From: Elusimicrobiota bacterium
GTDB taxonomy: Bacteria; Elusimicrobiota; Elusimicrobia; 2-02-FULL-39-32
NCBI GenBank assembly: GCA_021730935.1
Contig: JAKFYJ010000037.1
Location: 1 to 39,168 of the forward strand
Reading direction: 5' to 3'
Length of the DNA: 39,168 nucleotides
In this document: piece after piece, positions 3,632 through 39,168 of the stretch
How the letters are laid out: every line of letters starts with the position of its first letter
How positions within the stretch are numbered: position 1 is the first letter of the stretch
The notes under the pieces: model-generated
The model's database searches: none
Told to the model about the DNA's origin: nothing
The model's input: the letters and a program-made list of their open reading frames with translations, nothing else
Made by a program: the position numbers and the translations under genes

Positions 3632-4835
3632 CATCGTTAAAAAAGGGATCGGGATTTCCCTGACCCTCTATGCTCTCGCCATTCCCCTTTCCATGTCCGC
3701 GTCCAACATCGCCCTCGGCTTAACCATTCTTTTCACTCTCGTTTATGTCTTTCAGTCGCAATCCAAAATCTATCTCCCCCGCTCGATTTATCCCCTTCTC
3801 CTTTTTTTCCTCTGGGCTTCCGTCACGGTCTGCGTCGCCGAAAACCGTTTCAGCCTCCTGAGCCTGAAATCCTTCGACAAAACCTGGAACCTGGCCGGCA
3901 TGATTTTTATCCCCGCCGGATTCGCATGGAAATCCCAGGACCTCAAGAAAATATTTAAAATTCTCCTTTTCGCCGCCTCCGCCGTCGCCGTCGCGGGATT
4001 CATGGACTATGCTTTCGGAAAAGAATTTCTGCGCCTGGTTTATGAAGGCCGGTTCTATGGGTTCCAATCCCACCCGCTCCACACCGGCGGACTCTATTGC
4101 CTCCTCTCCCTCACCGCAGTGAGCCTGGCCCTGTTCTCCCCGGGCGAAAGATCCGAAAAATTCGTCTGGGCCGGAACAGGAATCATTTTGTTCATGGCCG
4201 TCATCCTCACAAGGTCGCGGTCCTATTATCTCGCGTGGGCTCTCGGGTTCATGTTCCTCCTCGGCTTCAAAGGGGTGAAAACTTTTCTGATCGGAATCTG
4301 CGCAGGCGCTTGTCTTGTCTTGTTTTTATACGCCCTGGACCCGGGATTTCAAAACCGCATCAACTCCCTCAATGTCCGGCACACGGACGAATCCGCGAAA
4401 ATCCGGTTCCGTTTATGGAAGGCCGCGGAATTGATGGTGGAAGATCATCCGCTCACAGGCGTGGGCTATCACAACTGGCGGAACCGCATCCTGGAATATT
4501 CCCGTTCCGTGTCAGAGGTCCCCCTCGACCAGGCCTCTTTCGCTCACGCCCACAACAGCTATCTCACCTTCGCCGCGGAAACGGGGCTCCCGGGACTCTT
4601 CCTCTTTTTATGCTTTTGGTTTTTCCTTATTAAAGAACAATTGAAAGTCCTGCGGACCTCGCTCAGGGATCATGCCGGGACCGCGCTCATCCTCGCCTCA
4701 ATCGCAGGACTTCTGGCCTTGCTCCTCGCCGCCGTCTTCGAGCATAATTTGCTCACCGCAAGCCTCTCGCTTTATCTATTTTTCCTCATCGGCCTGTCGC
4801 GGGTTCCCTCCGCCGATGACGGCGAGAAATCATGA
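3621..4835 (+). CDS. O-antigen ligase / polymerase family (Wzy/WaaL) membrane protein
   Basis: The 404-residue protein starts at a GTG inside the 3' end of the GT2 gene (11 bp overlap). It has about ten hydrophobic helices and one large periplasmic loop. The diagnostic signature is at 309-325, HAHNSYLTFAAETGLPG, preceded by a loop with GVGYHNW and FRLWKAAELM, as in Wzy_C/O-antigen ligase proteins. WaaL joins undecaprenyl-linked O-polysaccharide to lipid A-core in the periplasm; Wzy polymerises O-units and looks similar, so sequence alone does not decide between them. Setting among core-assembly transferases favours ligase. Its end overlaps the next gene by the ATGA tetranucleotide, which suggests coupled translation. 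Confidence 0.8.
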   Translation: MSPDIVKKGIGISLTLYALAIPLSMSASNIALGLTILFTLVYVFQSQSKIYLPRSIYPLLLFFLWASVTVCVAENRFSLLSLKSFDKTWNLAGMIFIPAGFAWKSQDLKKIFKILLFAASAVAVAGFMDYAFGKEFLRLVYEGRFYGFQSHPLHTGGLYCLLSLTAVSLALFSPGERSEKFVWAGTGIILFMAVILTRSRSYYLAWALGFMFLLGFKGVKTFLIGICAGACLVLFLYALDPGFQNRINSLNVRHTDESAKIRFRLWKAAELMVEDHPLTGVGYHNWRNRILEYSRSVSEVPLDQASFAHAHNSYLTFAAETGLPGLFLFLCFWFFLIKEQLKVLRTSLRDHAGTALILASIAGLLALLLAAVFEHNLLTASLSLYLFFLIGLSRVPSADDGEKS

Positions 4836-16637: not shown

Positions 16638-17627
16638 ATGCCAGACACGTCTTCCGCGTCCATTTTGCGACGGGCCAAATCCGTTTTGCTGATTGAATCC
16701 CAGGCCGTTCGGGACCAGATCCGGCATCTGGACCGCGGATTCCAAAAAGCCGTTGAAGTTTTTCACAACGCAACTTTGCTCGGCGGGCAAGCGGTGGTGA
16801 TGGGCATGGGAAAATCGGGGCTGATCGGCCGAAAAATTGCGGCCACCCTTTCTTCCACGGGAACCCCCTCCATCTTTTTTCATCCCGCCGAAGGCCTTCA
16901 CGGCGACCTGGGCATGATCCGCTCATCCGACGCGGTGCTCGCGCTCTCCCAGTCCGGAGAAAGCGATGAACTGAAAAAAATTATTCCGGTTTTAAAACAA
17001 AGGAATCTCCCCCTTGTGGCCATGACCCAAAGCGCCTCTTCCCGCCTCGGACGGATGGCGGACATCGTGATCATCACCAAAGTGAGAAAGGAAGCCTGCC
17101 CCATGAATTTGGCTCCCACCGCTTCAACGACCGCGATGCTGGCCCTGGGCGACGCTCTGGCGATGGCGCTCATGGATAAAAAGAATTTCAATTATAAGGA
17201 TTTTGCGAAACTCCACCCGGGAGGAGCCCTCGGAAAAAAACTCACCCTGACCGTCGAGGAAGTGATGCGGAAAGGGAAAGACAACCCCATCGTCAAAGTG
17301 GGCGCGACCGTGAGACAAGCGCTTCTGGAAATGACCCGCACGCGCCTGGGCGCGGCCAACATCGTGGACAGAAACGGAACGCTCGCCGGATTTTTCACCG
17401 ACGGAGATTTGAGACGGAAACTCCAGAAAAATTCCAGGTTATTAGATTTGAAAATCGAACAGGTCATGACCCGCGCCCCCAAGACCGTTCAGCCGGAACA
17501 AGTCCTCCATGAAGCGCTCGCGCTCCTCAAAAGTTTCGGCATCGACAACATCCCCGTGGTGAACGGCCAGGGCAAACCCGTGGGCATCCTGGACGAGCGC
17601 GACCTGCTCGCCGAAGGCATTTCATGA
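16638..17627 (+). CDS. kdsD: Arabinose-5-phosphate isomerase (KdsD/KpsF)
   Basis: The 329-residue protein interconverts ribulose 5-phosphate and arabinose 5-phosphate, the first step to Kdo. The SIS domain spans about 30-190 with VVMGMGKSGLIGRKIAATLSSTGTPSIFFHPAEGLHGDLGM and LALSQSGES; HPGGALGK follows at about residues 194-201. Two CBS domains fill the C-terminus (about 210-329), the last ending GILDERDLLAEG. Length and layout match KdsD/GutQ. The ATG has an AGGA a few bases upstream. It overlaps the kdsC fusion gene by 4 bp. Confidence 0.94.
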   Translation: MPDTSSASILRRAKSVLLIESQAVRDQIRHLDRGFQKAVEVFHNATLLGGQAVVMGMGKSGLIGRKIAATLSSTGTPSIFFHPAEGLHGDLGMIRSSDAVLALSQSGESDELKKIIPVLKQRNLPLVAMTQSASSRLGRMADIVIITKVRKEACPMNLAPTASTTAMLALGDALAMALMDKKNFNYKDFAKLHPGGALGKKLTLTVEEVMRKGKDNPIVKVGATVRQALLEMTRTRLGAANIVDRNGTLAGFFTDGDLRRKLQKNSRLLDLKIEQVMTRAPKTVQPEQVLHEALALLKSFGIDNIPVVNGQGKPVGILDERDLLAEGIS

Positions 17628-18727
17628 TCCCGAAAAAAATTCTCGAGCGCGCAAAGAAAATAAAACTCCTCGTTTTCGACGTGGACGGCGTGCTCACGGG
17701 CGGCGAAATCATCATCCTGGACAACGGCCAGGAAATCAAAATCTGGAGCGTCAAAGACCGCATGGGTTTTGCCATGCTCAAACACAGCAAGTCCGGCATC
17801 AAGATGGCCTGGCTGACCGCGCGAAAATCCGATCAGGTGCAGAAGCGCGGCGAAGAGATCGGCGTCCACTATATCCGGCAAGGCCTCAAGGACAAATGGG
17901 CTGAGCTTCAGGCCATCGCCGCGGAATTGAATCTCAAACCTTCAGAAATCGCCTATTGCGGCGACGATTATGTGGATTACAAAGCCATGAAAAACGTCGG
18001 ACTCGCCGTCTGTCCGCCGGACACGCCTGAACTCCTGAAAAAAATATGCCATTATCAAACCAAAGCGGAAGGCGGCAAAGGCGTGGCCCGCGAAATGATC
18101 GAAATCCTGCTTCACGCCCAGAATCACTGGAAAAAAACCATGGAACCTCTTTTGAGTTTTCTCGTGATCGCCGGCCTCAGCCTGTTCATCTCCGCCTGTT
18201 CCCCCTCTCAAAAAGCGCCGCTCGAGATGGTGGAAAAGCCGGACCAGTGGGTGGAACAGTTCAAGATCACGGAAACCCAGGCCGGCATTCCTGTCTGGAT
18301 CCTCAACAGCGAGATCGCGCAAATTTATAATAAACAGAAAAAAATCACGCTCGAAAATTTTAAAATTGAGTTCATGGACGTGAAATCCAAACGCAAAAGC
18401 AATTCCAAAGAAGACCTCACTCTCGTTAAAAAGAATCTCACGACCAATGCCCAGCTGGAAGCGCCCAAAGGCGAAGTGAACACCGAAACCAAGGACCTCT
18501 CGGCCTGGGGCGGCGTGAAAGTGGAAACGCAGGACGGGACCACGCTCACTTCGGAACGGCTCCAATATTCAACGAAAACCCAGAAGATCACGACAGAATC
18601 CGCCGTCAAAATTGTCCGCAAAGATTCCATATTGATCGGCGAAGGCATGGAAGCCTCCCCGGACTTGAGCACCGTGAAAATCCTTCGGCACCAGGCCTCC
18701 ATTTATCCCAAGAACATCACCCAATGA
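17624..18727 (+). CDS. kdsC-lptC: Fused Kdo-8-phosphate phosphatase KdsC and LPS export protein LptC
   Basis: The 367-residue reading frame joins two neighbours usually encoded separately. Residues 10-165 are KdsC, a capless HAD phosphatase: D19 and D21 in FDVDGVLTGG, LTAR at 65-68, K90 and CGDDYVD with D114-D115. From M173 a signal-like helix (175-190) ends in a lipobox ISAC with C192, and 195-367 is a beta-rich LptC domain with the repeating pattern of LptC/OstA proteins (EAPKGEVNTETKDLSAWGGV). A run of seven A at 18131-18137 lies just before M173; one base fewer would end KdsC at TGA 18153-18155 and leave LptC starting at ATG 18140. So it is either a true fusion or two overlapping genes with one indel. 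KdsC-LptC order and flanking kdsD and lptA match E. coli. Confidence 0.85.
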   Translation: MIPKKILERAKKIKLLVFDVDGVLTGGEIIILDNGQEIKIWSVKDRMGFAMLKHSKSGIKMAWLTARKSDQVQKRGEEIGVHYIRQGLKDKWAELQAIAAELNLKPSEIAYCGDDYVDYKAMKNVGLAVCPPDTPELLKKICHYQTKAEGGKGVAREMIEILLHAQNHWKKTMEPLLSFLVIAGLSLFISACSPSQKAPLEMVEKPDQWVEQFKITETQAGIPVWILNSEIAQIYNKQKKITLENFKIEFMDVKSKRKSNSKEDLTLVKKNLTTNAQLEAPKGEVNTETKDLSAWGGVKVETQDGTTLTSERLQYSTKTQKITTESAVKIVRKDSILIGEGMEASPDLSTVKILRHQASIYPKNITQ

Positions 18728-29586: not shown

Positions 29587-30459
29587 ATGGAAAACAAAAA
29601 CAAGGCGCTCAAATTCATCTTCTGGGTGGTGACGACCCTGGCTCTCGGAGTCATCTTCTACAAATTTTTCGGAGACCTGGAACAGCCCATGGAATGGAAG
29701 ATCCTCACCGTCTTCATCACATTTTCGATCTGCGCTTTTCTTTATCGCGTCCTCCGGAAAAAATCCACCGAAGACCAGCTCACTCGCTGGACGGATGAAG
29801 CGATCGAGTGGTCCGACACGGGGGTTTCCGCTGTCTCGCTGGCTTTCGTCATCATGGCCTTTGTGCTCCAGGCCTTCAAAATTCCCTCCGGATCCATGAT
29901 CCCCACCCTGCTGGTCGGCGACCACCTTTTCGTGAACAAATTTATTTATGGTCCCCAGGTGCCTTTCACCCTGAAACGCATCAAAAAATTCAAAGAGGTC
30001 CAGCGTTATGACGTTGTGGTTTTCCTTTGCCCCCCCGCAGGACTCTCCGAGAGCGACCGGCGAGACGGCATCAAAAAAGATTTCATCAAGCGCTGCATCG
30101 GCCTTCCGGGAGACACGATTGAGATCAAAGACAAAGCGCTTTATATCAACGGACAGAAAGCGGACGACGCTCACGGGACCTTCAATCAGCCCGCAATTTA
30201 TCCCAGAGTGGCGCTTTTCAAAACGAAAGAAGAATATCAGGCTCAGTGGGAGAAAGGCGAATTTGCCCATGTCCAGACAGAGCTGATCCGCGACAATTTT
30301 GGGCCCGTGAAAGTCCCGGAAAAACATTTCTTCGTGCTCGGAGACAACCGCGACGGATCTTACGATTCCCGCTTCTGGGGCCCCTTGCCGGAAGAATATC
30401 TGAAAGGCCGCGCCTGGCTCCTCTATTGGCCATTGAACAGGATCAAGCTGATCCGTTAA
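29587..30459 (+). CDS. lepB: Signal peptidase I (LepB)
   Basis: The 290-residue membrane protease has three hydrophobic segments at about 8-27, 39-54 and 80-98. The nucleophile is S103 in KIPSGSMIPTL, and the general base is K168 in FIKRCIGLPGD. The GDNRDGSYDSRFWG box near the C-terminus is the signature of the family. The catalytic part faces the periplasm, where it cuts Sec signal peptides such as those of the DUF3108 and LptA proteins. The gap to lepA is three bases. Confidence 0.95.
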   Translation: MENKNKALKFIFWVVTTLALGVIFYKFFGDLEQPMEWKILTVFITFSICAFLYRVLRKKSTEDQLTRWTDEAIEWSDTGVSAVSLAFVIMAFVLQAFKIPSGSMIPTLLVGDHLFVNKFIYGPQVPFTLKRIKKFKEVQRYDVVVFLCPPAGLSESDRRDGIKKDFIKRCIGLPGDTIEIKDKALYINGQKADDAHGTFNQPAIYPRVALFKTKEEYQAQWEKGEFAHVQTELIRDNFGPVKVPEKHFFVLGDNRDGSYDSRFWGPLPEEYLKGRAWLLYWPLNRIKLIR

Positions 30460-30858: not shown

Positions 30859-31971
30859 ATGAACCTCACCGTCTTCGCCGATCATGATCTGAAACATCAT
30901 CTGGCCGGAGGCGCCAACGTCAACCTCGAAGAAAACCTCCGCCGCCTCAGCTCCAAATTTAAAATCCGCCTCCTCTGTTCCTGGGAAGAAGGCCTCCCCG
31001 AGAGAGAAACCAGCCACGGCATCGAGATTTATCGTTTCAAAGGAAACCAACTCTCCCTCCGCTGGACGATTCCGCTTTATTTTAAACGCCGCCTCGAAGC
31101 CGACACAGACGTCGTCTGGGACGAAGTGGACGCCTCTGTCCCCTGGCTGACCCCGCTTTTCACAAAGAAACCCATCCTCATGCATTGCCTGCACTTTCAG
31201 AAATCAAATTATTTTTATGAGCTCCCAAAAATTCCAGCCGCCGCCGCATATTTTTTGGAACCCATGCTTTATCGGCTTTATAAGAACCACACGTCTCTCG
31301 CGATTTCCAAAAGCACGAAAGATTGTTTGATTGAAATTGGGTTTAAACCCGAGAGGATCGAACTGGTTTCTCCGGGCCTGGACCCCAAAATTTTTAAGCC
31401 GGAACAGGAGCTCCTCTCAAAAAAATCAAAGTCCCCCCTCATCGTTTCCCTCTCACGGCTCCGCGCCTGGAAGGGCGTGCATTTTGCGATTCAAGCCATG
31501 AAAGAGATTGCCGCTCAAATCCCCGAAGCTCAATTGGCCGTCATCGGCACGGGGCCTTATGAGCAGGAACTCAAAAAGCTCGTCTCAACATTAGGGCTGG
31601 ATAAAAATGTTCGGTTTTTGGGACGCTTGTCAGAAGAAGAAAAAATGGAATGGCTCGCAAAAGCGAATGTGCTCACAAAAACATCCGGCCGCGAAGGTTG
31701 GGGGATCGATGTCCTGGAAGCGAATGCCTGTCTGACGCCGGCCGTGGGCTGGAGAGTGGACGGAACGAAAGACTCGATTCAGGATCAGAAGACAGGATTT
31801 TTAGTGGAGTTTGGAGACATTCCCGGGTTGGCAAAAAATGTCGTCACCCTGCTTAAAGATCCCGATCTCCGCCTCAAGATGGCCCGCCAATCCCGAACAT
31901 TCTGCGAATCTTTCACCTGGGAAGATTCGGCCTCGAAGATAGAAGAAATCCTTAAAAACCTTCATCCTTAA
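30859..31971 (+). CDS. GT4-family glycosyltransferase
   Basis: The 370-residue GT-B protein has the Gly-rich acceptor loop HLAGGANVNLEENLRRL near the start, then VSPGLDPKIFKPE, SRLRAWKGVHFAIQA, AVIGTGPYEQELKKL, and the acidic E279-x7-E287 motif (EGWGIDVLE) that binds the nucleotide sugar. GT4 enzymes build LPS, capsule or cell-surface glycans. It follows the receiver gene by one base. The 12-bp gap to the convergent giant gene has no recognisable terminator. Substrates cannot be inferred. Confidence 0.85.
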   Translation: MNLTVFADHDLKHHLAGGANVNLEENLRRLSSKFKIRLLCSWEEGLPERETSHGIEIYRFKGNQLSLRWTIPLYFKRRLEADTDVVWDEVDASVPWLTPLFTKKPILMHCLHFQKSNYFYELPKIPAAAAYFLEPMLYRLYKNHTSLAISKSTKDCLIEIGFKPERIELVSPGLDPKIFKPEQELLSKKSKSPLIVSLSRLRAWKGVHFAIQAMKEIAAQIPEAQLAVIGTGPYEQELKKLVSTLGLDKNVRFLGRLSEEEKMEWLAKANVLTKTSGREGWGIDVLEANACLTPAVGWRVDGTKDSIQDQKTGFLVEFGDIPGLAKNVVTLLKDPDLRLKMARQSRTFCESFTWEDSASKIEEILKNLHP

Positions 31972-31983
31972 CATCAATCCTCA

Positions 31984-34900
31984 TCACGCCTGAACCGCGA
32001 TGATCTGAAGGCGTTTTAGCTGTTCGGGAATGGTTGGGGTCACCCGCAAGAGCATTGTCCCGCCGATAATTTCATAAACAATTTTAAAAATATTTTTGCC
32101 TGATTTAAACAAATAGATGAGCTCGTCGGAGCCAATGTATTCCACAGGCAGATTCGCGTTTGAGAGGCGCAAATACGGCATGGAACCCCTCACCGCGCGA
32201 TAGAGGCCTTCAGAATCGTCCGAAGTCGGTCCATGGACAATTTTTCTTGAAACATATGCAAGCAAAGCTCCTGCGTTTTCATCAAGTTTTAATTTTGCAA
32301 TCACCCCGTCGTATGTAACCGAGTCGTTGCTCGCATAAAGCCGAATATATAGAGGTTTGCTCGCGTCATCCTTCATGTGTTTGATCCACGCATTCACAAG
32401 AATATTGACCTGAGCTTCGTTTATCTCGCCGTTGCTGACATCGACGCAAATCACCCGGACATTGTAATTATTTGAAACTTTCCCCTGGATATCCTGCGCC
32501 TGAATTCCGAACGCTCGGGAAAGCTCAATCGCCTCCATTTTGCGGACATCATATCCGTCATAAATGTTTCTTCCAAAACGGCGCGCATTATATTTCCTGA
32601 CGGTGCCGTTAAGATCTCCCTCATGAATGGGCGGGAGGAGTTCGGAGGAAGCGTCAGTCGTGACAGCAAAACGAAGGCTCACAGGCAAATTTTCGGAAGA
32701 AATCCTGAAAAGTTCGGCCAGTCTGTTTCGATGTTTAAACGGAACAGGATCCGCTCCTCGCTCCCACCGTGAGTAAACGGTTTGGGAAATCCCAAACGCT
32801 TCAGCCGCTCGATCATGAGAATATCCTTCAGCCATCCGGGCGAGCTTAAGATGAGTCATGTCTTCAGAAAGGTTTGCGGCGTTCATGGCGTCACTTTGCG
32901 TTTCGATTCCGGAGAGGATGAGGTAAGCAGTTCGTTTTAAAACTTTTGAGGCAATCGGCCAGGCGCGGTCATTTTTCAATGACGAGGTTCTTCCTGTCTC
33001 AAAGTTTTCCAAAACGGAAATGCTGGAAATAATTCCTTCCTGAATGAATATTCGAGACATTTCTCCAAAGCTGACTCCGGAAAGTCTGCGGAGAAGCCTG
33101 AACCGTTCTCCGGGCTTTAGTTTTCGGAGTTCCGCAACAGTTTCCGGCGGCAAAGGCGCAAACCTGCTTCGTCCGAACAAAAGCCATTCAGGAGAAATTC
33201 CAAGTTTATCAGCGACCCTGAATACAACCGCTTCATTCGGTTTATTCCCGCCCCGTTTCCAGGAAGGCAAAGTGTCCGGACCAATGCCTTCAAGGATGTC
33301 TTGTCTTGCAAGGCCATATTCCTTCTGAAGTATATTGATAATGCATTCGATCCGCATAATCATCGCACGCACCGATGAATCGCCTTCGACCGATTTCAAT
33401 TCATCGCGCATCTCCGCGTTCAGGGATTCAGGATCGGCCGCATAAAAATATTTTTTTGCGATCCCTGTCACCTGCCATGTCCCGTTAATGCATCGAAGCG
33501 GGAACCCTCTGAGAGCAAGCTCCTCCAGACCTTTTTCCAGATTTTCGGCTGACGAAATCCAAACATCGCGCTCGTCGCGGTATTTATAAATTTGATCGTA
33601 CAATTCCTGTGAAGTAAACGCCTGTTCAGCCTTTTTCAGAATATTATATCCCCATAAAAGATCGGCAACCGCCTTTTGCCTGAACGGCTCGGAGACTCTG
33701 GACGGAGATTTTGACAAGAATTCGGCGATATCCTTGCCCTCGCGCATCCTAAACTCCTGAGACAGGGGAAGATTTTTTACATCGGTGTTCCTCCACCGAA
33801 TGATCTGAGATGAACTCTGAGGCACCGGCCTCAACCGCAAGGTCAAAAGATGTTCATGTCCATAAAGCACCATCGCCTGAGTCATCGCGAGTTCTGCAAT
33901 TCGAGGTTTGATTTTCAATTTATCCAAAAGAATTGGACGGGCAAACGCCTGAATTCGGCTGGGATTCTTGTTAACAGAAGTTCTTTGACTTGGGGTGAGC
34001 GCGGCCCATGCCTGATTTATGGCCGAAATGATTTGATCCTGATATTCCATCGCCAGTTTCGAGGCCCACAGCTTTTCCCTGAATAATTTCGCGTAGCGGA
34101 CCTTGCGCGGTATTTTTCGCTGTCCGGAAAGAAAGAGGGTGTATTCCGACCATTTGTGCCAGGAGAGCGTGTGCTTCTGTTCGAACAACCATTTGATCCA
34201 ATCATTGGGATTTAAAGATTTGCCGGACGGGGCATGATTCAAGACCAACAACTCTTTTGAAGATAGAGATTGAATCCTCATCCACCCCAACCACCCTCTA
34301 TTCAAGTCGAACCGCACGGCGATGTTGTTCATGGCGTGAGCAAACGAAGGGATTGCCCATCTCACCCAAAGAGATGAGCCGGGGAAGAGGGGGTTGAGGA
34401 GGCCGAAACCCAGGCCATAAAGGAAATGGTTCAGGTAATTTTTGCGGTGGGCGAGACTGAAGATACCCGCCTGAAGAAAGAGAATCGCCCAATCGGAATT
34501 GATGCCCGCGGCATGGAGAACCATGGGCACGAGGACTCGAAAAACGCCTTCTTCCAAGACGCCTTCGAGAAGGACGCTTGAGGCGAGATGGGCGAGAGTC
34601 TTGCGAGTCCACTCCGGCAATGCCGACAACCGCTTAGATTGAACGATCCGCTCATATACTTTCAGCGGAGCGGTGACGGATTGGAGGGAGGCGGAAGGGG
34701 TGTCCGGGAGGATTTGATTCCTGGCGATTTCAATCTGCCTGCGGAAATTGCTCAGCGCCTCTTCTTCCGTCAGACCTGAGATGCCGTCCAAACCTGAAAG
34801 GCTTTCGTCTATTTTCTTTAAGGCAACGACATGAGAACTTCTGTCGTCACTGTGAGAAAACGGATGTTGCCGCAAAATCCTTAAAAGCGCATGAACAAGA

Positions 34901-37900
34901 GGCAGTTGAACCCATCCCTCAAGAATTTCCTTTTGGCGGAGTCCGCGAAGATAAGCGTTGAGTTCGTCGTCACTCCAGTTGACTCCGAGCCACACGCGCA
35001 AGAGATCATATCCCCGAGGCATGATGAAGAAGGGCAAAGCGGTCTGCGGAGGATTTTCACGATCCCGTTGTCGGAAATAATCCCACGCCGCGTCGGCAGT
35101 CTGAACGCTGACCCATTGATTAATGTGACCTTCAAGGATTTTAAGCGCGCTGTCAGAAGAACCTTCAAATATCTCTGAGAGAATCCCGACGGGGCGGGAC
35201 AATTCTTCGCGGATTTGGGGCGAGACGGCGGAAATATATCCATGATCGCCGGCCAGTCTCTCAAGCACACGAGAACGGATATCCCGGTCCATGTTTGCAA
35301 CAACAGAATGCGCTCTAAAAAGCGCGTCGTGTCCCATATACTCTGCAAAGATTCCCCGAAGTATGGAACTCGCGATTTCAGACACCGCCTCGATTCTCTC
35401 TCTCTGAGTTCTGTGAACATCCACGCAGATGCTCACAACCACCCCCGTTTTCTTCTGGGCATAAATTGCCCGCGCCCCGTCTTTGGCAAGGCCCACCACC
35501 ACCCACTCACTGCCATTTCCGTTGGGTCGGAAAGTTGCGGCCTGGTCCAGGTCTTTGGCCACCCAGATGTTGCCGAAGGACAGCGGCATGGAGGAACCGT
35601 CTGTTTTGACCAAACGCCCTCCCTGGAATCCGGACTGGATCACATCCTCCGTTCCGTCCCGCTCAATGACAAGCGTCTTTAAGCCCGAAATGGGTGACCC
35701 GCTTGAATATTGGCTGAGTTCAGGCAACCAGCCGAGATAAGTGATCTGCATGTGGCCTTCATATCCGGGGAGGAGACCCTCTTGACGGAGTCGCGCCGCC
35801 TGGAGCTGAGTGAAGGCCGCCAGGAGCTGAGGACTCACCAGCGGCGGAGTTGCGGGCAAATCGCGCAATGAGGCGACGACATGGTATATTCGGTCCGCAT
35901 TTCGCGGAGAACCAACTGCGATCCGTTCCACAATATCAAGAACAAATTTTCTGGCCCAGGCAGAAACATTTTCACCTCGAGATGTTTGCTCTCTCCATTT
36001 AGCAATTAAAAAATTCAAAAATATCGATGCATTATTCTGTTCATGTGACCTCCAAAACCCATGGACGATCCGTTGGGGAGTCACGAGGGATTCCCGCATG
36101 TCTGGAGAGATATCCTCCCAGCTTGATTGCAGAAATCTCCATGCGGAAGTTAAAAAAAGTGAGGGTGAATACAGTGCCTCCTCTAAAACTTCTGCCTGGG
36201 TTGTCTGTGGAAGACTTTGGAAGTGCGTTTCAAAAAATGCCCATGCATAACTCCATGTAGAGAAAGTAGAGAGGCCGCGGATAAGTTGTTTGAGAGTCAC
36301 GACAGATTCCCGCACGCTCGGAGGAATGTCGTCCCATCTTGAATTCAGAAATTTCCATGCAAAAGAGGGAAGAGAGGAATCACTTTCCAGCGCGGCGCCT
36401 AAAACCTCTGACCGCGTTGCTTCTGGAAGAACCTGGAAGTGTGCTTCGAAAAATTCCCACGCAAAAATTTGTGTTTCTGAATACCCCATACCACGATGAA
36501 GCCGTCGAAGGGTCACCACAGATTCCCGCACGCCTGGAGGAATGTCGTCCCATCTTGATTTCAGAAGCTCCCATGCAGCAGCGGAAACCTGGTGGATTCT
36601 GACTTTATCCAGAGCGGAGCCTAAAACGTCTGACTGTGTTGCTTCTGGAAGATCATGGAAGTGTGCTTTAAAAAATCCCCATACATGTCTCCGTGCATAT
36701 AAATCCGATAAACCATCGATAATCCGTTGAGGAGTCACGACGGATTCCCGCACATCCTGAGGGATGTCATCCCATCGTGATTTCAAAAACTTCCATGCAG
36801 GAATGGAATCAGGGTATTTTCCATACAGCGCATCAATCAGTTTGCGCACCTGAATCTCCCCTTCTGAATCAAACGAAATGCTCTGCAACCTCAGCCACCC
36901 CAACCATTTGTATTTTTCTGGCAACCCCATCCGCACGGCGATGTTGTTCATGGCATGAGCAAACGACGGGATTGCCCATCTCACCCAAAGAGATGAGCCG
37001 AGGAAGAGGGGGTTGAGGAGGCCGAAACCCAGGCCATAAAGGAAATGGTTCAGGTAATTTTTGCGGTGGGCGAGACTGAAGATACCCGCCTGAAGAAAGA
37101 GGATCGCCCAATCGGAATTGATGCCCGCGGCATGGAGAACCATGGGCACGAGGACTCGAAAAACGCCTTCTTCCAAGACGCCTTCGAATGAGCTCGCAAC
37201 AAAAATGGCGGCTCGGGCGGCCTTTGATTTTGAAATCGGGAACAACGCCATGAGACGATGAACCCCGAGAAAGATCCGGTTTCCGGCGACGGATTGGAGG
37301 GGATTTGCGGAATCAGACAAAGCTTCGCCGGTGAGGCTCTTATAATAGGCGTTCACATCTTGCTCGATCGTCGCCTGGGTTTCTTTAAGCAGTTTGGCAT
37401 ATTGTTTAAGTTTGCGGAGATTAACGGGCTGTCCCGAAAATGCTTTTTCGGCATCCTGAACGACAGCATCGATGTCCAGGGCTTTCACCCGCGCGAGGGT
37501 TTGGCGGATCACTGCGGGGTCAAAATCAGAGGCTGTCCATTTCTCTGTCATGTATATTTCTTCTTCCGACTTTCTCACCTCCTGGGCGGCTTTTATAAAT
37601 TTATTAATGATCTTTAATTTAGGACTGAAGGCCTGGTCGTGGTCAAAGGAAACGAAAGTGTCCGCGACCCGAGACTTTTGGATCATGCCCTTTGAATCGT
37701 CCCACTTCCTTGTGAAGACGTTAAAAACAAGGGAGGCGGACTCCGCGGCTTTCAAGGACTTTTGCGGCAAACTCTGCGGAGACATGTGGAGGGAAAGCAA
37801 TGTATAGGCGAATTCGGAATTGGGAACGACTTCGCTCGTGTTTGCCCCAATCTTGCGGCCGATGACATATCCAAGGAACTCGCGGATGGGACTGTTTTCA

Positions 37901-39168
37901 TCGTCATGATACTCCGGTTTTCGCGCTTTTGGGGTTTGATAATATTTCTTCCCATAATAAAGCAGGCTGTCAGATTTTCGAACATAGATGAAATAGGCCG
38001 GCGGCTGAGCGCCTTTAGGCGACATTCCATTACTTCGTAACAGGAGATTGACGGCCTTGGGCAAATCATAGTCCTGTGTTTGAGTGAGCCGGTTCCATTC
38101 GGAATTCAGCTCAAGACGAGAAATCCTTACATTAATAAACGAAAGGATATCCTGATCGATCAGAGGGACATGGATGAGCCGCATCAGAGAGATTGTATCT
38201 TTCAAGTCTTGGACCGAAACATCCTGACGGACTTGCGCCGTCAATTTTTCAACTTGGCTCGCAGGATCCGGGTGTCCGATCGAACGCAAAAAGACATAGG
38301 GCATTCGTAAAAAATCCGCAATATAATCTTTAAGGGTTAAAAATTTACGGAGTTTTCCCAATTCGCCTAATCCCAGAAATAACAAAATCGGCTGAAGATC
38401 GCCGTCCCGTTCAGAAGTGCGCGCGTACGCAGAGTCAATATGTTTTTGAAGTTCTGGAGAAACGGGAACTATCCAATCGGGGAGAGAGTCGCCGTCTGAA
38501 GAAGGAAACGCGGATCTCTTGGAGTTATATATTTCATTCAATTCCTTGATCTGAGCCCTTAAGTCCTCATTTTTCGTTCCATACAGAAACCCTTGAGCGT
38601 CGGATAAAAATCCATGAACAACCAGATCTAAAACATCCCGGCTCACGCCGGCATCCAGAACGGTTTGCGCGTGTTTGATTAAATCAGAGATCATTGCCGC
38701 TGATTGTTCGGGACTCAAATCAATATCTGATGAATCTGCATATCTTTTCAAATATTCTTCCCATGCCTTGATGACAGGCTCGGCGTTTTCCTTCAAAATC
38801 AGGCGCAGTTCATTGTATACCCGGATTTTCTGCTCCGGGGTCATCTCACCAGGAGTGAGGGCACCGACAGGATCAGTGGGATTCAAAACCGCCTTCTGGA
38901 CGCGGGACCCGTGCGGAACGGACATGTTTAAAATCATGTGGAAGATGGAGGCTGAGAGGGCGGCGGAGAACGGGGAGCCGGCGGCAGGGGACGCGGCATT
39001 CAACAGCTCGATCGCAAAGGGCAGGAGTGACAGCGCGGAGACGACAACAGGAATGGCCAGTTTCTCCGTCAATGTGAGGCGTTTGCCTCGGTGCTGGAGA
39101 GTGTGAAGGGCGATGAAAAGGGTGCGGGAAAGGGACAAAACGGCGATGGGATGGAAAGGCATGAGCAT
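31984..39168 (-). CDS. Giant multidomain CPBP-protease protein, 5' end cut by window
   Basis: At least 2,394 codons, open to the window edge, so the true N-terminus may be further out. Residue numbers are from the ATG at 39168. A membrane helix lies at about 38-55. A possible PI3K/HipA-like kinase-like region is at 385-520 (YFIYVRK, REFLGYVIGRKIG, VSFDHDQAF). CPBP/CAAX protease core 1 spans 655-747 with E666-E667-R671, H701 and H738-N741. Four imperfect 72-74-residue repeats follow at 791-1060. CPBP core 2 spans 1529-1620 with E1539-E1540-R1544, H1574 and H1611-N1614. After it come a winged-helix-like segment (about 1830-1905) and three XRE-like HTH segments near 1936-2000, 2010-2090 and 2105-2165, the last being the clearest (RMAEGYSHDRAAEAFGISQT). 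The C-terminal 200 residues are unassigned. Large CPBP proteins are, to my knowledge, known from Omnitrophota. Function is unknown. Confidence 0.85.
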   Translation of the reverse strand: MLMPFHPIAVLSLSRTLFIALHTLQHRGKRLTLTEKLAIPVVVSALSLLPFAIELLNAASPAAGSPFSAALSASIFHMILNMSVPHGSRVQKAVLNPTDPVGALTPGEMTPEQKIRVYNELRLILKENAEPVIKAWEEYLKRYADSSDIDLSPEQSAAMISDLIKHAQTVLDAGVSRDVLDLVVHGFLSDAQGFLYGTKNEDLRAQIKELNEIYNSKRSAFPSSDGDSLPDWIVPVSPELQKHIDSAYARTSERDGDLQPILLFLGLGELGKLRKFLTLKDYIADFLRMPYVFLRSIGHPDPASQVEKLTAQVRQDVSVQDLKDTISLMRLIHVPLIDQDILSFINVRISRLELNSEWNRLTQTQDYDLPKAVNLLLRSNGMSPKGAQPPAYFIYVRKSDSLLYYGKKYYQTPKARKPEYHDDENSPIREFLGYVIGRKIGANTSEVVPNSEFAYTLLSLHMSPQSLPQKSLKAAESASLVFNVFTRKWDDSKGMIQKSRVADTFVSFDHDQAFSPKLKIINKFIKAAQEVRKSEEEIYMTEKWTASDFDPAVIRQTLARVKALDIDAVVQDAEKAFSGQPVNLRKLKQYAKLLKETQATIEQDVNAYYKSLTGEALSDSANPLQSVAGNRIFLGVHRLMALFPISKSKAARAAIFVASSFEGVLEEGVFRVLVPMVLHAAGINSDWAILFLQAGIFSLAHRKNYLNHFLYGLGFGLLNPLFLGSSLWVRWAIPSFAHAMNNIAVRMGLPEKYKWLGWLRLQSISFDSEGEIQVRKLIDALYGKYPDSIPAWKFLKSRWDDIPQDVRESVVTPQRIIDGLSDLYARRHVWGFFKAHFHDLPEATQSDVLGSALDKVRIHQVSAAAWELLKSRWDDIPPGVRESVVTLRRLHRGMGYSETQIFAWEFFEAHFQVLPEATRSEVLGAALESDSSLPSFAWKFLNSRWDDIPPSVRESVVTLKQLIRGLSTFSTWSYAWAFFETHFQSLPQTTQAEVLEEALYSPSLFLTSAWRFLQSSWEDISPDMRESLVTPQRIVHGFWRSHEQNNASIFLNFLIAKWREQTSRGENVSAWARKFVLDIVERIAVGSPRNADRIYHVVASLRDLPATPPLVSPQLLAAFTQLQAARLRQEGLLPGYEGHMQITYLGWLPELSQYSSGSPISGLKTLVIERDGTEDVIQSGFQGGRLVKTDGSSMPLSFGNIWVAKDLDQAATFRPNGNGSEWVVVGLAKDGARAIYAQKKTGVVVSICVDVHRTQRERIEAVSEIASSILRGIFAEYMGHDALFRAHSVVANMDRDIRSRVLERLAGDHGYISAVSPQIREELSRPVGILSEIFEGSSDSALKILEGHINQWVSVQTADAAWDYFRQRDRENPPQTALPFFIMPRGYDLLRVWLGVNWSDDELNAYLRGLRQKEILEGWVQLPLVHALLRILRQHPFSHSDDRSSHVVALKKIDESLSGLDGISGLTEEEALSNFRRQIEIARNQILPDTPSASLQSVTAPLKVYERIVQSKRLSALPEWTRKTLAHLASSVLLEGVLEEGVFRVLVPMVLHAAGINSDWAILFLQAGIFSLAHRKNYLNHFLYGLGFGLLNPLFPGSSLWVRWAIPSFAHAMNNIAVRFDLNRGWLGWMRIQSLSSKELLVLNHAPSGKSLNPNDWIKWLFEQKHTLSWHKWSEYTLFLSGQRKIPRKVRYAKLFREKLWASKLAMEYQDQIISAINQAWAALTPSQRTSVNKNPSRIQAFARPILLDKLKIKPRIAELAMTQAMVLYGHEHLLTLRLRPVPQSSSQIIRWRNTDVKNLPLSQEFRMREGKDIAEFLSKSPSRVSEPFRQKAVADLLWGYNILKKAEQAFTSQELYDQIYKYRDERDVWISSAENLEKGLEELALRGFPLRCINGTWQVTGIAKKYFYAADPESLNAEMRDELKSVEGDSSVRAMIMRIECIINILQKEYGLARQDILEGIGPDTLPSWKRGGNKPNEAVVFRVADKLGISPEWLLFGRSRFAPLPPETVAELRKLKPGERFRLLRRLSGVSFGEMSRIFIQEGIISSISVLENFETGRTSSLKNDRAWPIASKVLKRTAYLILSGIETQSDAMNAANLSEDMTHLKLARMAEGYSHDRAAEAFGISQTVYSRWERGADPVPFKHRNRLAELFRISSENLPVSLRFAVTTDASSELLPPIHEGDLNGTVRKYNARRFGRNIYDGYDVRKMEAIELSRAFGIQAQDIQGKVSNNYNVRVICVDVSNGEINEAQVNILVNAWIKHMKDDASKPLYIRLYASNDSVTYDGVIAKLKLDENAGALLAYVSRKIVHGPTSDDSEGLYRAVRGSMPYLRLSNANLPVEYIGSDELIYLFKSGKNIFKIVYEIIGGTMLLRVTPTIPEQLKRLQIIAVQA
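34312..34568 (-). repeat. 257-bp internal repeat, copy A (second CPBP core)
   Basis: Encodes residues 1534-1619 of the giant protein. Aligns without gaps to 36931-37187 with four mismatches, about 98.4% identity. Both copies keep the protease motifs. One substitution changes Pro to Leu (NPLFPGSS versus NPLFLGSS); the rest are largely silent. Confidence 0.95.
35989..36798 (-). repeat. Four tandem 72-74-residue protein repeats
   Basis: Unit starts at residues 791, 865, 937 and 1009 of the giant protein. Each has a first half AWxFLxSRWDDIPxxVRES and a second half of the type AWxFFExHFxxLPEATxSEVL, so it is itself a double of about 36 residues. The pattern suggests a helical solenoid. The last unit is degenerate, ending in the WRFLQSSWEDISPDMRESLVT segment and a shortened tail. 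Confidence 0.85.
36931..37187 (-). repeat. 257-bp internal repeat, copy B (first CPBP core)
   Basis: Encodes residues 661-746 of the giant protein and matches 34312-34568 at 253 of 257 positions. Flanking DNA on both sides differs from that of the other copy, so the boundaries are sharp. The identity is far higher than in the surrounding protein-level repeats. Confidence 0.95.

What the first reader, a model, noticed from the sequence alone, without database searches (positions are those of the whole stretch)
31984..39168. Giant protein joining two CPBP proteases, solenoid repeats and multiple helix-turn-helix segments
One open frame of at least 2,394 codons links a membrane-embedded CPBP/CAAX-type protease core (present twice, with all Glu/His/Asn motifs intact), a solenoid-like repeat array, a winged-helix-like segment and three XRE-like HTH segments, ending in an unassigned 200-residue domain. 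CPBP proteases cut prenylated or membrane substrates; coupling them to DNA-binding folds in one chain would allow a membrane-tethered regulator that could be released by its own or a partner's cut. The domain calls come from motifs; the regulatory model is inference.
Basis: partly seen in the sequence, partly recalled or inferred. Interest (0 to 1): 0.75.

Follow-up and report, generated by a model that had tools for sequence, protein, structure and literature searches.

The report
Giant protein with built-in membrane proteases
This is the back half of an enormous bacterial protein, one of at least 17 related giants in its genome, that carries membrane-embedded protease modules and DNA-binding-like folds; its relatives share one exported front domain and one short tail signature, which gives a first handle on giant proteins that are widely seen but poorly understood.

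Summary
Window 31984-39168(-) is one open frame of 2,394 codons with two intact CPBP/Rce1-like cores, helical repeats, XRE-type HTH segments and an unassigned C-terminal domain. It is the C-terminal part of a longer gene: a neighbouring contig (9,914 bp, one frame) overlaps its start by 193 bp, giving at least 5,634 residues and a third CPBP core. The genome belongs to Elusimicrobiota, not Omnitrophota.

The gene belongs to an expanded family of giants. About 17 loci in this genome (about 7% of it) and 10-44 copies in each of 20 of 60 class genomes share an exported, possibly Ere/ChaN-like head. Their bodies differ, and their C-termini carry a signature (IxIQA in this class, LSAA in other families); P0001 ends in IIAVQA. 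CPBP-type modules recur as membrane segments of these giants, and most keep the catalytic E/H/H/N residues.

The regulator model is only partly supported. CPBP and HTH are real, but the HTH cluster is absent from all sampled relatives. A parallel exists: CPBP followed by sigma-70 in giants of two other genera. I favour built-in intramembrane proteases that process these giants; this is inference. Giant ORFs in these phyla are known; the head, tail tag and CPBP modules were not found in the papers available.

The parts
31984..39168 (-). Giant open frame (P0001), 2,394 codons plus stop; C-terminal part of a gene that continues on contig C65 (9,914 bp, one frame)
38884..39168 (-). End of a third CPBP core (FIALH, HMILN); its EEAIFT motif lies on contig C65
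   Evidence: sequence; overlap of 193 bp with one mismatch
37294..38001 (-). HipA-like kinase-related domain (aa ~390-625), conserved in G002 and G022 giants; catalytic-loop H/N lost here
   Evidence: PF20613 E 0.12 for the G022 homologue, so weak
36904..37209 (-). CPBP/Rce1-like core 1 (aa 654-755): EEGVFR, FSLAH, HAMNN
36889..37187 (-). Copy 1 of a near-identical DNA cassette covering the CPBP core
36049..36807 (-). Helical (HEAT/ERAP1_C-like) repeat array, aa ~788-1040
34300..34590 (-). CPBP/Rce1-like core 2 (aa 1527-1623), catalytic motifs intact
34276..34568 (-). Copy 2 of the near-identical DNA cassette (93% over 300 bp; about 98% in the core)
33364..33531 (-). Winged-helix-like segment (aa 1880-1935), not confirmed
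33103..33288 (-). XRE/DicA-like HTH, aa 1961-2022
   Evidence: NF007257 E 1.6e-6, below that model's cut-off; second HTH_3 stretch
33004..33111 (-). Possible XRE HTH, aa 2020-2055
   Evidence: HTH_19 E 2.8e-6 but below family cut-off
32698..32850 (-). XRE HTH, aa 2107-2157
   Evidence: HTH_3 E 1.9e-9 whole protein, 1e-11 segment
31987..32667 (-). Tail domain (aa 2168-2394), shared with other giants of the genus
   Evidence: A1/A3; hits not used to build A1 at E 7e-17 and 1e-15; all at or near the ends of giant frames
31987..32004 (-). C-terminal signature IIAVQA

Best explanation
The frame is the C-terminal part of a giant (at least 5,634 residues) from a lineage-expanded family of exported mosaic proteins in Elusimicrobiota. 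Members share a Sec-type signal peptide followed by an FWxxRR motif and a ~450-residue head, differ widely in their bodies, and end in a short conserved C-terminal signature. The body is anchored in the inner membrane by CPBP-type four-helix modules, most of which keep the catalytic residues. Inferred mechanism: these modules are built-in intramembrane proteases that cut their own or sibling giants, turning the chain into membrane-bound and soluble parts; here the released C-terminal part would include the XRE HTH cluster and the tail. Shown: one frame, family membership by tail and shared modules, CPBP and HTH homology, catalytic motif retention, signal-peptide-like N-termini in relatives. 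Inferred: presence of the head on this gene, membrane topology, protease activity, self-processing, DNA binding. The family part is well supported (about 0.85); the confidence given is for the whole statement including processing.
For: Continuation on C65. Tail profile A1 hits only giant frames, at their ends; G001:C73 carries head and tail on one strand around a scaffold gap. HipA-like plus CPBP unit shared with G022:C66, a complete 6,484-aa frame with head and IQA end. Head in 19-23 matches in this genome, nearly all in frames over 1,800 aa. CPBP HMM: 15 of 100 membrane clusters in giants at E<1e-3 versus 0 in reversed and 0.3 in shuffled controls. E/H/H/N set retained in about 19 of 24 modules read by eye at low sequence identity. 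CPBP followed by sigma-70 in G010 and G019. Purifying pattern in the HipA-CPBP region.
Against: The 5' end and head of this gene are not seen. No cleavage site, substrate or expression data exist. CPBP modules could act on unrelated substrates. Some modules are clearly degenerate (C65 cassettes, C44), and the HipA-like domain here has lost catalytic residues, so parts of the chain may be non-enzymatic. HTH are not conserved in relatives. An exported head and DNA-binding HTH in one chain are hard to reconcile unless the membrane modules place the C-terminus in the cytoplasm; topology was not resolved, and the CPBP cores of this frame score only moderately in hydropathy.
Confidence: 0.4

Rival explanations
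1. Surface giant for cell-cell interaction: the CPBP modules are co-opted mainly as membrane anchors, and the enzyme-like and HTH segments are diversified binding or filler domains. Head and tail tags serve export and surface assembly; no processing or gene regulation.
For: Published view of giants in these and sister phyla as surface or predation proteins (PMC10066038, PMC12057145). Heads have signal-peptide-like N-termini. Most bodies of this genome have few recognisable domains. HipA-like domain decayed here; some CPBP modules degenerate.
Against: Retention of the catalytic E/H/H/N set in most CPBP modules across strongly diverged giants argues for activity. Giants of another family contain complete cytoplasmic proteins such as a sigma factor, GGDEF and cation efflux.
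Confidence: 0.35
2. One reading: a membrane-tethered transcription regulator released by CPBP cleavage, comparable to regulated intramembrane proteolysis.
For: CPBP and two secure XRE HTH in one chain; CPBP-then-sigma-70 order shared by G010 and G019 giants.
Against: HTH cluster not found in any giant of 117 class genomes; CPBP-containing relatives of this frame lack HTH; several HTH side by side inside a giant are unlike known membrane-tethered regulators (general knowledge).
Confidence: 0.15
3. Neutral gene-fusion mosaic: captured gene pieces accumulate in a tolerant giant frame without a coordinated function.
For: Recent cassette duplications inside the gene: CPBP core 93%, C65 membrane cassette 90%, 46-bp block 98%; poor conservation of bodies between genomes.
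Against: Open frames over thousands of codons, purifying codon-position pattern, conserved ends in 45 of 46 giants, catalytic motifs retained.
Confidence: 0.1

Closest known systems
Giant ORFs of Omnitrophota and Elusimicrobiota (e.g. Velamenicoccus archaeovorus 39,678-aa protein; PMC10066038, PMC11573180)
   Same: Very long single frames, several transmembrane segments, few annotated domains, sister or same phyla.
   Different: Those papers report adhesin or carbohydrate domains; no shared head, C-terminal signature or CPBP modules are described in the passages searched.
CPBP / Rce1-like intramembrane proteases (PF02517)
   Same: Two cores above the Pfam cut-off with EExxxR, FxxxH and HxxxN.
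   Different: Most members in the class are frames of a few hundred residues; here cores sit two or three times inside a giant chain.
Myxosortase, a CPBP protease that processes C-terminal sorting tags (PMC11980579; only the start of the abstract read)
   Same: CPBP protease linked to a C-terminal tag on surface proteins.
   Different: MYXO-CTERM has an invariant cysteine in a tripartite tag; the giants end in IQA or LSAA without it, and the protease is in the same chain. Functional parallel is speculative.
XRE-family repressors (RstR, DicA) and HipA-like kinases
   Same: Significant HTH similarity; weak HipA-like similarity of aa 390-625.
   Different: Not a HipBA operon: both lie in one giant chain, and the HipA-like catalytic loop is lost here.
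Ere/ChaN (TIKI-type) superfamily
   Same: Head has invariant QDxH, EG and AGGxH motifs and a strand-helix core; EreC, ChaN and HopBA1 appear among weak fold matches.
   Different: No fold match below E 0.1; large helical insert; membership not established.

Membership tests
CPBP/Rce1-like intramembrane protease (PF02517) | Profile score above the family cut-off | tested here: met
   Both cores over cut-off
CPBP/Rce1-like intramembrane protease (PF02517) | Catalytic E, H, H, N motifs | tested here: met
   EEGVFR / FSLAH / HAMNN in both copies
CPBP/Rce1-like intramembrane protease (PF02517) | Four-helix membrane core | tested here: inconclusive
   Hydropathy peaks only 0.75-1.46; no structure predicted for this part
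CPBP/Rce1-like intramembrane protease (PF02517) | Proteolytic activity | not testable with these tools
   none
XRE HTH DNA-binding domain | Profile score above cut-off | tested here: met
   HTH_3 45.1 bits against 23
XRE HTH DNA-binding domain | DNA binding | not testable with these tools
   none
Head/tail giant family (described here) | Tail domain at the end of a giant frame | tested here: met
Head/tail giant family (described here) | C-terminal signature ending A, Q or G | tested here: met
   IIAVQA; 45 of 46 giants
Head/tail giant family (described here) | Signal peptide and head domain at the N-terminus | tested here: inconclusive
   5' end not in the assembly; C65 is 5'-open and no partner contig found by end overlap
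Ere/ChaN (TIKI-type) superfamily (head of relatives) | Significant fold match | tested here: not met
   No match at E<=0.001; EreC rank 7, E 0.39
HipA-like kinase | Profile score above cut-off and catalytic loop | tested here: not met
   PF20613 E 0.12 for a homologue; H/N of the loop lost in this frame
Omnitrophota giant proteins | Encoded in an Omnitrophota genome | tested here: not met
   Class contains a 1,643,562-bp single-contig genome, the size of E. minutum; same-family contigs match Elusimicrobia records

The most novel reading that the evidence does not exclude
Elusimicrobiota and Omnitrophota use a self-processing polyprotein strategy: dozens of giant chains per genome, each with a common exported head, embedded CPBP intramembrane proteases and a common C-terminal recognition tag, are cut into membrane and soluble parts, including transcription regulators (XRE HTH here, sigma-70 in G010/G019-type giants).
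Probability: 0.15. Interest if true: 0.95.

Novelty: new variant of a known kind. Interest (0 to 1): 0.66.

Why it matters
Giant ORFs are among the largest predicted bacterial proteins, common in Elusimicrobiota and Omnitrophota, and mostly without assigned function. A shared head, a shared C-terminal signature and recurrent CPBP modules would unify many of them into one family, give a sequence test for complete genes, and turn the open question of whether such chains stay intact into a defined experiment: mutate the CPBP glutamate or the last residues and look at chain length and location.

Tried and rejected
Structure prediction of aa 1830-2394 (winged helix, HTH, tail) failed: pLDDT 43.6, so nothing is drawn from it. 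Fold search with the good head model (pLDDT 87) gave no significant PDB match. PDB sequence searches with the HTH region and the head profile gave nothing significant. Hypothesis that the CPBP cassette is a genome-wide mobile repeat: rejected, only two copies, both in this frame. Hypothesis that the frame starts at the window end: rejected by C65. Joining C65 to one of the five 3'-open head contigs by end overlap: no informative overlap. One tail homology across families at full length: G022 and G000 tails align only over the last ~32 residues, hhalign E 0.052, so the phylum-wide claim rests on the terminal signature. The original Velamenicoccus paper and a paper on groundwater Elusimicrobia were not held, and bioRxiv preprints, among them the giant-gene preprint, are not in the library.

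Full report
The frame. Window 31984-39168 on the minus strand is a single open frame of 2,394 codons ending in a stop at 31984-31986 and open at the contig end; the window is the whole contig C21. Random frames of this length do not occur at about 50% G+C (composition), and against a congener the differences in aa 419-763 fall 123/99/184 on codon positions 1/2/3, so it is coding and constrained.

It is a fragment. Contig C65 (9,914 bp) is one uninterrupted frame of 3,304 codons whose last 193 bases match the first 193 of this gene with one mismatch and in frame. The joined frame has at least 5,634 residues and no internal stop. This join is inferred from the end overlap. The first 95 residues of the window frame are then the end of a third CPBP core whose EEAIFT motif is on C65.

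Parts. Two CPBP/Rce1-like cores are above the Pfam cut-off with EEGVFR, FSLAH and HAMNN intact. Their cores are about 98% identical in DNA over about 85 codons, while the homologous downstream flanks (WLGWLRLQS / WLGWMRIQS) have diverged, which points to recent gene conversion of the catalytic core (inference). C65 carries another duplicated membrane cassette (90% over 301 bp) and shares a 46-bp block at 98% with the window frame. XRE HTH segments are real: HTH_3 45.1 bits in two stretches, DicA-like 1961-2022, and a weaker third. The repeat array is helical, nearest to ERAP1_C but below cut-off. Residues 390-625 resemble HipA-like kinases only weakly and have lost the catalytic loop residues kept in G022 homologues. 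The winged helix is unconfirmed.

The family. The C-terminal ~200 residues recur at the ends of giant frames in this genome and two congeners. A complete giant from the same genome (C39, P0002) has a signal-peptide-like N-terminus and a ~450-residue head. That head gives 19-23 matches in this genome, nearly all in frames of 1,800-6,657 aa; with the joined gene and C60 these frames sum to 60,670 codons, 6.7% of the genome. In the class 20 of 60 genomes have it, in an all-or-none pattern with 10-44 matches each. In the phylum sample 62 of 295 genomes and 31 of 90 genera have it, with at most five candidates scored per genome. Named carriers include Elusimicrobia, Omnitrophota, Auribacter and a PVC symbiont. 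In G001:C73 head and tail lie on one strand, separated only by a scaffold gap, and G022:C66 unites head, HipA-like domain, CPBP-like modules and the IQA end in one complete frame, which ties the window frame to the head family.

The ends. In about 20 of 23 giants with a visible N-terminus the signal peptide is followed by FWxxRR or a close form (signal peptides judged by eye, no SignalP). Of 25 giants in G000 and G022 with a visible end, 24 end in A or Q, against 12% of other frames in the same loci (binomial p about 1e-21, but paralogues are not independent). In 19 more giants from other genera the last residues are LSAA, LAAA, KAA, KAG, IQA and similar; 45 of 46 end in A, Q or G. P0001 ends in LQIIAVQA. 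A dedicated C-terminal recognition step is the simplest reading (inference).

CPBP modules are a recurrent membrane module. An HMM from 28 CPBP sequences matches 15 of 100 membrane clusters in giants at E<1e-3, against none in reversed clusters and 0.3 on average in local shuffles; ten of the seeds came from giants, so some matches are by construction. Read by eye, about 19 of 24 modules keep the first E, FxxxH and HxxxN; the first dozen were found by a motif search and are biased towards this. That these four residues are the essential ones in Rce1 is from general knowledge. In another family of the class, in which the head was not found, a 13,760-aa frame (G010) carries GGDEF, M48 protease, two CPBP, a complete sigma-70 factor, cation efflux, WD40 and glycosyltransferase domains, and G019 carries MFS, ATP-grasp, CPBP and then sigma-70. 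CPBP before sigma-70 is shared by these two genera.

Host. G051 is a single contig of 1,643,562 bp in the same class, the size reported for Elusimicrobium minutum (PMC2613244). The genome is Elusimicrobiota.

Mechanism. The most likely reading is an exported, membrane-threaded mosaic whose CPBP modules cut the chain or its siblings. Protease activity, topology and DNA binding are not shown. The surface-anchor reading is nearly as likely. The regulator reading keeps some support from CPBP-sigma-70 giants but not from conservation of this HTH cluster.

Novelty. Giant ORFs in these phyla are published and described as poorly characterised (PMC10066038, PMC11573180, PMC12057145). I found no mention of CPBP modules, a common head or a C-terminal signature, but the key preprint on giant genes and the Velamenicoccus paper were not available to check.

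Noticed in passing
G010:C13 (L025-L027), 13,760-aa frame; G019:C123 (L028): Giants without a detected head that look like fused operons: complete MFS, ATP-grasp, GGDEF, sigma-70, M48, cation-efflux and glycosyltransferase domains in one chain, with CPBP before sigma-70 in both.
   Followed up: partly
window 36889-37187 and 34276-34568: Two CPBP cores with near-identical DNA and sharp edges inside diverged flanks, suggesting recent intragenic gene conversion of the catalytic core.
   Followed up: partly
L017 (C65) about 864-1164 and 4323-4617: Duplicated CPBP-like but motif-degenerate membrane cassette, 90% identical, in the upstream part of the same gene.
   Followed up: partly
window 37294-38001 and 32698-33288: HipA-like domain and XRE HTH in the same chain, recalling the HipBA toxin-antitoxin pair; the HipA-like catalytic loop is lost.
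   Followed up: no
table: Head copies are all-or-none: 10-44 per genome in some families, zero in gut Elusimicrobiaceae (f10) and in f8 and f14 of that sample.
   Followed up: no
window 29587-30459: A type I signal peptidase (S26) gene lies close to the giant, next to LepA; a glycosyltransferase (30859-31971) is convergent with the giant.
   Followed up: no
window 17624-18727: One frame matches both a HAD phosphatase and LptC, a possible fusion in lipopolysaccharide transport.
   Followed up: no
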